This document shows, in pieces, positions 25,649-28,241 of a stretch of DNA of 64,000 nucleotides; within the stretch, counting starts at the first letter, position 1; each line of letters starts with the position of its first letter. This DNA comes from Candidatus Hepatoplasma crinochetorum (lineage in GTDB: Bacteria > Bacillota_I > Bacilli_A > Mycoplasmatales > Hepatoplasmataceae): positions 248,001-312,000 of the forward strand of contig CWGI01000001.1 in NCBI GenBank assembly GCA_001179805.1. The letters run 5' to 3'. The translations under genes were made by a program, and so were the position numbers. The notes below the pieces were generated by a model. The model saw only the letters and a list, made by a program, of their open reading frames with translations. It was not told where the DNA came from and ran no database searches.

Positions 25649-26815
25649 CTATTTTTTCATTAAATATTTTAAATCAAATCCAAGAATCTTTAAATTAAAA
25701 ATAAATTTTTGATATTCAGTTCCATCAAATTTCTTATTCAAATTTTTTAATTGTAACATTAAATATGAAATTGAATTTGGTGTATCTAAATCATTTTCTA
25801 AAATTTTGATAAAATTTTGATCTACTAAAAAATTTAATTTTTTAGTATCAAATTTTTTATCGACTTTTTCTAAAAAATTAAATATTTTTTGCATTTGAAT
25901 TTTCGCATTTTTGATAACATTTTCATTAACATTAATTGGTTTTTGATAGTAACTTAATAAAAAAAGCATTCTCAAAACATTTGCCGAATGATTTTTTAAA
26001 AAATCTCTTCCATAAACAATATTTCCTAAAGATTTTGACATCTTTTTATTATTAAAATTTATATGGCCAACGTATAGTCATGCTTTTGCTAATTGATTAG
26101 TATGAATTGCCTCATATTGAGCCATTTCATTGACATGATGAGGAAAATAAAGATCAATTCCCCCACCATGAATATCAATTCCATTACTACCAAAATATTT
26201 TTCAATGAGATAAGAACATTCAGTATGCCAACCCGGTCTACCTTTGCTTCAAGGTGAATCGAAGTTTATACCTGTTTTTGTTTTTTTTCACAGAGCAAAA
26301 TCATTTTGATTTTTTTTGATAATAATTTTGCTTTGTTTATTTATTAATTCACCCATATCTATATTAAGTTTTGAATTATATTTTTCTCATTTATTTATTG
26401 AAAAATAAACATCTCCCTCAATTTGATATGCATAACCCAAATCCAGCAATTTTTTTATAAAATTTATCATTCCTTTGATATTATCGGAAACTTTCGGAAG
26501 ATAAGTTGGTTCGAGGATATTCATTTTTTCAAGAAGATCAAGATAATCTTTTAAATATTTTTCTGATATTTCTTTTTCTTTTACTTTTTCTTTTAAAGCT
26601 CTATCTATTATCTTGTCATCAATATCAGTAATATTATGAACATAAATTACTTTCTGTTTATTTGCTTTTGCCAATCGATGTAAAACATCAAAAATAACAA
26701 CGGATCTTAAATTACCGATATGAGGATAATCATAAACTGTAGGACCACAAAGATAAAATTCAATTTTATTCTTAAATTCAATTTTTTGCTTTGTATAAAA
26801 ATCTACTATAAACAT
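25649..26815 (-). CDS. cysS: Cysteinyl-tRNA synthetase
   Basis: This 388-residue class I synthetase charges tRNA-Cys. The zinc ligand region C-G-P-T-V-Y-D, the HIGH-like P-H-I-G-N and the K-M-S-K-S loop are all seen. The length is at the short end of the family, as in other mollicutes. Several TGA codons encode Trp. It is downstream of two tandem structured RNA units whose last terminator ends about 28 bases before the ATG, so readthrough could control expression. Confidence 0.96.
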
Positions 26816-26837
26816 ATTGATAAAATTATAATAAATA

Positions 26838-27051
26838 AAATAAAAAGTAGATAGGATTTAACTATCTACTTAATCATAAATGTGCTTAAAGGATTTAGAT
26901 ATCTAAAATATTTAATGAAATGATGCCGCTCTTTGAAATAAAAAGAGCAACATTTATGCGAGACGCCAAGTATCTTAATTAAATAAGAATGCATAAATGC
27001 TGCTATTTTTCTCTTATTTAATTATTTTGATACTAGGCAATATATATTATA
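26838..27051 (-). ncRNA. Structured RNA unit B (promoter, RNA, terminator) upstream of cysS
   Basis: On the minus strand the unit has a -35 ATGAGA (27070-27075), an 18-base spacer and a -10 TATAAT (27046-27051). An RNA of about 200 bases ends in a terminator hairpin at 26843-26870. The segment 26944-27052 is identical to 27207-27315 in copy A except for one base. A 10-bp helix (27029-27038 with 26965-26974, one mismatch) is extended by a perfect 12-bp helix (27012-27023 with 26977-26988). The loop of that hairpin (26991-27003) can pair over 13 bases with 26947-26959, as an alternative or pseudoknot. I cannot match it to a known RNA family. Confidence 0.65.
26843..26870 (-). terminator. Terminator of structured RNA unit B / possible attenuator of cysS
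   Basis: AGTAGATAG/CTATCTACT arms with a 7-base loop are followed on the minus strand by TTTTTATTTTATTT. The cysS start is 28 bases further on, which makes readthrough control plausible. Confidence 0.75.
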
Positions 27052-27069
27052 TCCATTTGATTTTTGAAA

Positions 27070-27075
27070 TCTCAT
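27070..27075 (-). promoter_or_regulatory. -35 element of structured RNA unit B
   Basis: ATGAGA sits 18 bases upstream of the TATAAT at 27046-27051. That is the same spacing as TTGAGA/TATAAT in copy A. Confidence 0.5.
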
Positions 27076-27094
27076 AAAATTCAAAATTTTTTGG

Positions 27095-27125
27095 AAAAAA
27101 AAGTAGATAGGAAAACCTATCTACT
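27095..27125 (-). terminator. Terminator of structured RNA unit A
   Basis: A 10-bp stem AGTAGATAGG/CCTATCTACT with a 4-base loop is followed by eight T on the minus strand. Confidence 0.85.
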
Positions 27126-27302
27126 CAATCATTAAATGCACTTAGGGGATTAATATCTTTTGAATATTTAATGAAACATGATATCGCTCTTTTTTAAAAA
27201 TAAAAAAGAGCAACATTTATGCGAGATGCCAAGTATCTTAATTAAATAAGAATGCATAAATGCTGCTATTTTTCTCTTATTTAATTATTTTGATACTAGG
27301 CA
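27095..27302 (-). ncRNA. Structured RNA unit A, near-identical to unit B
   Basis: This copy has its own -35 TTGAGA (27333-27338), an 18-base spacer, the -10 TATAAT (27309-27314) and a strong terminator (27095-27125), giving an RNA of about 208 bases. The core 27207-27315 matches copy B with one difference (GATGCC versus GACGCC on the plus strand). The 3' part between core and terminator has diverged, yet a GCTCTTTT/AAAAGAGC hairpin and the terminator stem persist. That is the pattern expected of an RNA with conserved structure. It begins 43 bases after the DUF3800 stop. Confidence 0.65.
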
Positions 27303-27308
27303 ATATAT

Positions 27309-27338
27309 ATTATATCTTTTGAAAATTTTATTTCTCAA
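27309..27338 (-). promoter_or_regulatory. Promoter of structured RNA unit A
   Basis: TTGAGA (27333-27338) and TATAAT (27309-27314) are 18 bases apart. This is the best consensus promoter in the neighbourhood. Confidence 0.7.
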
Positions 27339-27344
27339 AATTAT

Positions 27345-28100
27345 CTAATTTATTTTAAATAGAAAATAATTATTCATTTTTAAGCGATAATAATCACTTT
27401 TAATCAAGTAATTATTGAAATAAATTTGATCAATATAAAAATTTTTTTTCATAAATGGTTTTTGATGAAAATTAAACCATCTTTCAAGATAAGAGATTAA
27501 ATCAGCAATTTCTATTATTACATAGTATTCTTTATTTTTTTTATCAATAAAATTAATATTTTTTTGAAATAATGTAAATTGATTAAATGATTTAAAATTT
27601 AATTTAAATAAATTAAGAAGATTATTATCAAGATATTGTCCTCTTGTTTCGATAAATATTTGACTATTGAAGAAAAAGTTATCAATTAAAAGTTTATTAA
27701 ATAAAAACCTAATTGAATTAAAATAAGGGTCAATTGTTTTTTCTTGGTATTTATTATAAAGAGAGATTATATCAATCTTTATTTGATATATTTTAAAATT
27801 TTGTAACTCTAATAAATTTAGAAATTTATGGATATATATTTGATAATTTTTATCATATTTTAATTTAAAATTGAAAAATTCATAACTATGAAAAACAAAT
27901 TTTTCTGTTTTAAAATATCTTATTTTAAATTGTTTAATTTTAAAATTAAGATAATCAAAAGTTGATTTATTTATTAAAACGAGAGTAATAAAATTTAAGG
28001 TTTCATTTTTTGTAAAATTTTTCTTTGATTTACTTTTATAAACTTTTTGTAGATGGTTATTTGTTATTCCAGATTCATCAATTCCAATGTAATATTTCAT
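27345..28100 (-). CDS. DUF3800-family protein
   Basis: This 251-residue protein begins Y-I-G-I-D-E-S-G and near the C-terminus has I-E-I-A-D-L-I-S-Y. These two hallmarks of the DUF3800 family carry the conserved acidic residues D8, E9 and the later D. The family is predicted to have an RNase H-like fold and often sits in defence or mobile regions, but its activity is not established. It is very rich in Phe, Lys, Asn and Ile. It lies directly upstream of the two structured RNA units on the same strand and downstream of tRNA-Cys. Confidence 0.8.
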   Translation of the reverse strand: MKYYIGIDESGITNNHLQKVYKSKSKKNFTKNETLNFITLVLINKSTFDYLNFKIKQFKIRYFKTEKFVFHSYEFFNFKLKYDKNYQIYIHKFLNLLELQNFKIYQIKIDIISLYNKYQEKTIDPYFNSIRFLFNKLLIDNFFFNSQIFIETRGQYLDNNLLNLFKLNFKSFNQFTLFQKNINFIDKKNKEYYVIIEIADLISYLERWFNFHQKPFMKKNFYIDQIYFNNYLIKSDYYRLKMNNYFLFKIN

Positions 28101-28166: not shown

Positions 28167-28241
28167 TGGAGGCGCGGATCGGATTCGAACCGACGATCAA
28201 AGAGTTGCAGTCTTCTGCCTTACCAGCTTGGCTACCGCGCC
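28167..28241 (-). tRNA. tRNA-Cys (anticodon GCA)
   Basis: On the minus strand the acceptor GGCGCGG pairs with CCGCGCC. The discriminator is T and CCA is encoded. The anticodon loop CTGCAAC gives GCA. It lies 1.4 kb upstream of cysS on the same strand. Confidence 0.95.

What the first reader, a model, noticed from the sequence alone, without database searches (positions are those of the whole stretch)
26838..27340. Two tandem, near-identical structured RNA units upstream of cysS
Seen: two units on the minus strand, each with TATAAT, a -35-like hexamer at the same 18-base spacing, a roughly 200-base body and a terminator. A 109-base core (26944-27052 and 27207-27315) differs at one base, while flanking parts have diverged yet keep their hairpins. 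Inside the core a 10-bp plus 12-bp helix competes with a perfect 13-base pairing (26947-26959 with 26991-27003), so the RNA looks bistable. The last terminator sits about 28 bases before cysS, as in an attenuator. I could not match riboswitch or T-box consensus motifs. Inference: either duplicated trans-acting small RNAs or a tandem regulatory leader for cysteinyl-tRNA synthesis.
Basis: partly seen in the sequence, partly recalled or inferred. Interest (0 to 1): 0.75.

Follow-up and report, generated by a model that had tools for sequence, protein, structure and literature searches.

The report
Twin structured RNAs beside DUF3800 gene
Two near-identical small RNAs in an isopod gut symbiont look like partners of the neighbouring RNase H-like (DUF3800) gene rather than a control switch for the cysteine-tRNA gene after them; their fold matches no known RNA family.

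Summary
Two tandem minus-strand units, each with a strong promoter, a structured body and a terminator, share a ~109-base core with one difference. The window is a 'Candidatus Hepatoplasma' genome (Mollicutes; isopod symbiont). No Rfam family matches.

It is a diverged DUF3800 protein with an RNase H-like fold, under purifying selection like cysS. DUF3800 genes often neighbour structured RNAs, and I found DUF3800-I RNA beside other mollicute DUF3800 genes, including a second one in H. crinochetorum.

The order DUF3800-like gene, RNA, cysS is kept in 4 of 4 Hepatoplasma species. Three family members without the gene lack the RNA before cysS. cysS appears to have its own promoter after the last terminator. 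A cysS attenuator is therefore unlikely.

In H. vulgare the core is rewritten, yet P1, P2 and the 20-bp loop-to-3'-flank helix all still pair (11 of 20 double changes). This supports a two-state or pseudoknotted RNA. The two cores evolve in concert within species.

Best reading: autonomous small RNAs that partner and restrain the DUF3800 nuclease, working like AbiF-RNA or type III antitoxins. The association is well supported; the mechanism is inferred.

The parts
27345..28100 (-). DUF3800-like protein gene (251 aa; IDESG..H..E.R..E.AD motifs; RNase H-like fold predicted), directly upstream of the RNA units
27333..27338 (-). Unit 1 -35 hexamer TTGAGA
27309..27314 (-). Unit 1 -10 hexamer TATAAT
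27203..27303 (-). Unit 1 conserved core RNA (UUGCC ... GUUGCUCUUUUU)
27292..27301 (-). Unit 1 P1 5' strand
27275..27286 (-). Unit 1 P2 5' strand
27254..27273 (-). Unit 1 loop strand (PKa) of the 20-position loop/3'-flank helix
27240..27251 (-). Unit 1 P2 3' strand
27228..27237 (-). Unit 1 P1 3' strand, containing ACUUGGC, conserved to H. vulgare
27203..27222 (-). Unit 1 3'-flank strand (PKb); pairs with PKa, or by its 3' part with the next hairpin
27181..27216 (-). Unit 1 hairpin that uses the 3' part of PKb (third alternative pairing)
27130..27173 (-). Unit 1-specific 3' domain, 0-1 differences among three species
27095..27126 (-). Unit 1 intrinsic terminator and U-tract
27070..27075 (-). Unit 2 -35-like hexamer ATGAGA
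27046..27051 (-). Unit 2 -10 hexamer TATAAT
26940..27040 (-). Unit 2 conserved core RNA (P1 27029-27038/26965-26974; P2 27012-27023/26977-26988; PKa 26991-27010; PKb 26940-26959)
26923..26953 (-). Unit 2 hairpin that uses PKb
26837..26871 (-). Unit 2 intrinsic terminator
26825..26830 (-). Putative cysS -10 box (TATAAT), 9 bases before the ATG, kept in G003 and, shifted, in G002
25649..26815 (-). cysS (cysteinyl-tRNA synthetase), downstream neighbour, probably not part of the unit
28167..28241 (-). tRNA-Cys, upstream neighbour; absent from the H. vulgare locus

Best explanation
The two units are independently transcribed, autonomous small RNAs that form one module with the upstream DUF3800-like RNase H-fold gene. 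Each core has a 5' hairpin (P1+P2) whose ~20-base loop is complementary to the 3' flank. The RNA can therefore switch or refold between the P1/P2 hairpin and the loop/3'-flank helix; P1 can coexist with the latter as a pseudoknot, but full P2 hardly can across a ~5-base linker. Proposed mechanism, inferred: the abundant tandem RNA binds the DUF3800 nuclease and holds it inactive, as an antitoxin-like or scaffold partner comparable to abiF-motif RNA with AbiF, and loss or refolding of the RNA frees the nuclease. Shown here: units, promoters and terminators in sequence, structural conservation, linkage, predicted fold of the protein. Inferred: transcription, RNA-protein binding, direction of control. 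I put the partnership with the DUF3800-like gene at about 0.7 and the inhibitory direction given partnership at about 0.6-0.7.
For: Order DUF3800-like gene, RNA, cysS kept in 4 of 4 Hepatoplasma species although the upstream neighbours changed. The motif ACTTGGCN{1,2}TCT is non-coding only at these loci, and the core RNA is absent elsewhere in 119 mollicute genomes at comparable score. The protein: the only Pfam family matched is DUF3800, in 2 of 4 homologues, weakly (E 0.012). Foldseek top viral hit is a DUF3800 protein, E 9e-5, probability 1.00; nearest solved folds are RNase HII, E 0.02. dN/dS 0.18-0.30, similar to cysS. Known DUF3800-I RNA sits beside DUF3800 genes in mollicutes, including H. 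crinochetorum downstream of the gene on the same strand as here. Structure: z -8.3 and -5.3; a covariance model built without H. vulgare finds its RNA full length at E 4e-4; the loop/3'-flank helix has 11 of 20 double and 3 single compensated changes. Precedent: abiF-motif RNA is an antitoxin for the adjacent AbiF (PMC12373285).
Against: Linkage to cysS is equally conserved (4 of 4). The DUF3800 assignment of the window protein itself does not pass Pfam's cut-off, and profile comparison with mollicute DUF3800s was not significant. The RNA lies downstream of the gene with its own promoters, unlike the antitoxin-terminator-toxin order of type III systems. Nothing shows toxicity or binding. Only one divergent homologue carries the covariation.
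Confidence: 0.5

Rival explanations
1. A tandem attenuator or regulatory leader for cysS: the last terminator is read through according to the RNA's state, controlling cysteinyl-tRNA synthetase.
For: cysS is the downstream gene in 4 of 4 Hepatoplasma species. The terminator lies close to cysS, tRNA-Cys is adjacent in three species, and the RNA has alternative pairings.
Against: cysS has a putative TATAAT 9 bases before its ATG, after the terminator. G005, G006 and G008 have cysS 7-53 bases after another gene, with no RNA. In H. vulgare another promoter/terminator unit lies between the RNA and cysS. There is no T-box or riboswitch match.
Confidence: 0.12
2. The RNA guides or scaffolds the DUF3800 nuclease to nucleic-acid targets (RNA-guided effector), with the 20-base 3'-flank segment as a masked guide.
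For: RNase H-like fold. DUF3800 occurs in Cas12a2-linked loci (PMC10910872). The 20-base segment is completely different in H. vulgare, always with a complementary internal strand.
Against: The segment is invariant between tandem copies and three species, unlike a changing guide. No other near-perfect target stands out in three genomes.
Confidence: 0.15
3. General trans-acting small RNAs unrelated to either neighbour (6S-like or antisense regulators), which merely lie in this intergenic region.
For: Own promoters and terminators, two copies, concerted evolution.
Against: Presence follows the DUF3800-like gene in the family. There is no 6S match in any of 10 genomes and no conserved distant target was seen.
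Confidence: 0.18

Closest known systems
DUF3800-I RNA (Rfam RF02969) and the other DUF3800-named RNA motifs
   Same: Small structured RNA next to a DUF3800 gene, own terminator, found in mollicutes including H. crinochetorum.
   Different: No sequence or covariance-model match to the window RNAs at E up to 10. Different architecture: DUF3800-I is a hairpin, a branched stem and a terminator stem of about 115 nt, often upstream of the gene; here two tandem units lie downstream.
abiF motif RNA / RCd22 with AbiF (type III-like toxin-antitoxin)
   Same: Structured RNA with its own terminator beside a nuclease-like gene, with duplicated motifs; shown to neutralise the protein (PMC12373285).
   Different: Unrelated protein family and RNA fold. 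There the RNA precedes the gene; here it follows it and has its own promoters.
ToxIN type III toxin-antitoxin
   Same: Repeated, pseudoknot-capable RNA beside an endoribonuclease-type gene (PMC8860590).
   Different: ToxI repeats are short (36-nt units) in one transcript upstream of the toxin. Here there are two ~200-nt units, each with its own promoter and terminator, downstream of the gene.
T-box / amino-acid leader of aminoacyl-tRNA synthetase genes
   Same: Position before an aminoacyl-tRNA synthetase gene, terminator near the gene.
   Different: No Rfam match, own promoters, and a putative separate cysS promoter after the terminator.

Membership tests
DUF3800 protein family (PF12686) | Profile score over the curated cut-off | tested here: not met
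   Window protein: no hit. Two of four homologues hit only DUF3800, weakly (best E 0.012).
DUF3800 protein family (PF12686) | RNase H-like fold with DESG and acidic motifs | tested here: met
   Foldseek top viral hit a DUF3800 protein at E 9e-5; RNase HII nearest in PDB; DESG, E.R and E.AD invariant. The model is of medium confidence (pTM 0.64).
DUF3800-I RNA (RF02969) | Covariance-model match | tested here: not met
   No match for the window RNAs at E up to 10; none in G000 or G003.
DUF3800-associated RNAs (as a kind) | Structured RNA conserved next to a DUF3800 gene | tested here: met
   4 of 4 Hepatoplasma species, taking the gene as DUF3800-like.
T-box / riboswitch leader of cysS | Known aptamer or T-box consensus | tested here: not met
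T-box / riboswitch leader of cysS | RNA continuous with the cysS mRNA | tested here: inconclusive
   Terminator and putative cysS -10 box lie between; transcripts cannot be tested here.
6S RNA (RF00013) | Covariance-model match | tested here: not met
   No match in 10 family genomes; positive controls found.
Type III toxin-antitoxin | Repeat RNA array, terminator, then toxin gene | tested here: not met
   RNA units lie downstream of the gene with their own promoters.
Type III toxin-antitoxin | Protein toxic alone and neutralised by the RNA | not testable with these tools
   Needs co-expression assays.
tracrRNA of the type II-A CRISPR system | Anti-repeat to the CRISPR repeat, near cas9 | not tested
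   Anti-repeat not tested. In the 657,101-bp genome the RNA lies at 542.9-543.3 kb, far from the published CRISPR array at 320.6-322.9 kb (PMC3942034).

The most novel reading that the evidence does not exclude
A new class of DUF3800-partner RNA that switches between two mutually exclusive, co-evolving folds to arm or restrain an RNase HII-like nuclease, kept as two concertedly evolving copies in a reduced symbiont genome.
Probability: 0.25. Interest if true: 0.8.

Novelty: new variant of a known kind. Interest (0 to 1): 0.5.

Why it matters
DUF3800 proteins and their neighbouring RNAs are widespread but, as far as the papers searched here show, their function has not been established. This is a compact, duplicated example whose RNA shows two alternative pairings preserved through near-complete sequence change, kept in a ~620-kb symbiont genome. 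It gives a small, testable protein-RNA pair for asking whether these RNAs inhibit, scaffold or guide the nuclease.

Tried and rejected
Rfam at gathering and permissive thresholds: only chance matches. 6S RNA: rejected. cysS leader: disfavoured. The tRNA-Cys D-loop GCCAAG is complementary to the conserved CUUGGC, but only over 6 bases by eye, which is easily chance. A conserved distant base-pairing target of GCAUAAAUGUUGC: none stood out. Relatives of the protein in viral contigs, phages and plasmids: none; RNA core in viral contigs: none. Profile comparison with canonical mollicute DUF3800s: not significant. Covariation within the three close species: no double changes, so all covariation rests on H. 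vulgare. MAFFT shifts the H. vulgare row by about one base in the loop, so I counted pairs on a hand alignment and checked homology with a covariance model built without it; with default filters over many loci that model missed the H. vulgare RNA.

Full report
WHAT WAS CHECKED. The two units are real and lie on the minus strand at the stated place. Each has a promoter with 18-base spacing: TTGAGA...TATAAT (11 of 12) and ATGAGA...TATAAT (10 of 12), the two best of 13 hits in the scanned region. The overall number of promoter-like hits is not above chance (shuffles 17.5), so their score and duplication carry the weight. Each unit ends in an intrinsic terminator; the scan found 5 terminator-like sites in 1.75 kb against 0.3 expected. 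The cores differ at one of 102 aligned positions. Unit 1 folds at -62.2 kcal/mol (z -8.3) and unit 2 at -49.4 (z -5.3); no shuffle did as well. No Rfam family reaches its gathering score on the units, and permissive hits are chance-level.

WHERE IT IS. The window lies in a 621-kb genome. Relatives of the same genus are 'Candidatus Hepatoplasma scabrum' Ps-JP (AP027133.1, G003) and 'Ca. H. vulgare' Av-JP (AP027131.1, G001). G002 has 657,101 bp, the published length of 'Ca. H. crinochetorum' Av (PMC3942034); this identification is by length. G000 may be H. crinochetorum Ps, which is an inference.

THE MISSED NEIGHBOUR. Directly upstream on the same strand, ending about 6 bases before the -35 box of unit 1, is a 251-aa gene (27345-28100). 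It occurs only in the four Hepatoplasma genomes among 320 of the order, always followed by the RNA and cysS. Invariant motifs are DESG, H71, E.R and E.AD..SY. The window protein itself has no Pfam hit, but two of the four homologues in the alignment hit one family only, DUF3800, at best E 0.012. An AlphaFold2 model (pTM 0.64) finds a DUF3800 protein as top viral match (E 9e-5, probability 1.00) and RNase HII as the nearest solved fold (E 0.02, probability 0.90). hhalign against canonical mollicute DUF3800s was not significant. dN/dS is 0.18-0.30, similar to cysS at 0.19-0.24, so the gene is under purifying selection. I call it DUF3800-like with good but not complete confidence.

WHY THAT MATTERS. 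DUF3800 is an RNase H-fold domain with a catalytic rearrangement, previously linked to putative ncRNAs (PMC10910872). Rfam holds DUF3800-named RNA families (PMC11701678). I reproduced the association. In 10 mollicute DUF3800 loci scanned, 4 carry a DUF3800-I RNA over its cut-off, one of them H. crinochetorum's second DUF3800 gene, with the RNA downstream on the same strand as in the window. Across 119 genomes many top DUF3800-I hits lie within a few hundred bases of a DUF3800 gene, though some are orphans. The window RNAs do not match that model.

STRUCTURE AND EVOLUTION. The core is a 5' hairpin (P1 10 positions, P2 12 bp) whose loop is complementary over 20 positions to the segment just after P1. 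Within the three close species there is almost no variation and no double change. H. vulgare supplies the test. A covariance model built without it finds its RNA between the DUF3800-like gene and cysS, full length, at E 4e-4 in a search of that 570-base stretch with filters off. It starts with the same UUGCC a few bases after a TATAAT, and P1, P2 and the loop/flank helix all pair although most letters differ: in the loop/flank helix 11 of 20 pairs changed on both sides and 3 on one. Its 21-bp stem is longer than any in 500 shuffles. In H. vulgare the loop/flank fold is the more stable (-33.9, against -26.1 for the 5' hairpin alone); in the window the 5' hairpin wins (-25.0, against -19.2). A linker of about 5 bases cannot span the full P1+P2, so P2 and the loop/flank helix are probably alternatives, while P1 plus that helix could form a pseudoknot; this is geometric inference. 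A third hairpin uses the same 3' strand. Within a species the cores differ by 1-3 positions, between species by 5-9, whereas the 3' domain of unit 1 is almost identical between species (0-1 of 49) and differs by 10 or more from unit 2. The duplication therefore predates the species, and the cores are homogenised, by gene conversion or selection.

AGAINST A cysS LEADER. In three other Hepatoplasmataceae genomes that lack the DUF3800-like gene, cysS starts 7-53 bases after another gene and has no such RNA. This is confounded by genus, since all carriers are one genus. A TATAAT sits 9 bases before the cysS ATG, after the last terminator, the same in G003 and present in shifted form in G002. It was the only one of ten gene starts inspected with TATAAT in the preceding 30 bases. 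In H. vulgare a further promoter-terminator unit separates the RNA from cysS. Linkage to cysS in all four species remains a point in the leader's favour.

MECHANISM. Most likely the RNAs are partners of the DUF3800-like nuclease and keep it in check. Close functional precedents are abiF-motif RNA, which neutralises AbiF and co-purifies with it (PMC12373285), and ToxI (PMC8860590). Association: well supported. Binding, inhibition and switching: inferred. A guide role is possible but less likely, because the candidate guide segment is invariant across copies and three species.

VERDICT. A real structured RNA pair that matches no Rfam family, a new variant of the known kind 'RNA next to DUF3800'.

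Noticed in passing
L024 2369-2386 and 2728-2745: In H. vulgare an 18-base block ATGTGAGACTTGGCGGTC from the RNA occurs again as a perfect inverted copy upstream of cysS, flanked by its own 6-7 bp complementary arms (AGAATCC/GGATTCT): a possible reduced antisense copy of the element.
   Followed up: partly
L024 2455-2690: A second promoter-plus-terminator unit of about 215 nt between the RNA and cysS in H. vulgare, folding only moderately better than shuffles (z -2.15), without convincing Rfam match and without clear homologue in nine relatives.
   Followed up: partly
L033 1438-2169 and 2232-2359: H. crinochetorum (G002) has a second, canonical DUF3800 gene with a DUF3800-I RNA downstream.
   Followed up: yes
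G001:C1:290750-290859: Sub-threshold DUF3800-I RNA in H. vulgare without a DUF3800 gene detected by Pfam search in that genome: possible orphan.
   Followed up: no
window 27130-27173: The unit 1-specific 3' domain (CATTAAAT...AATCCCCTAAGTGCATTTAATG) is nearly invariant across three species while its unit 2 counterpart has diverged, suggesting a separate function.
   Followed up: partly
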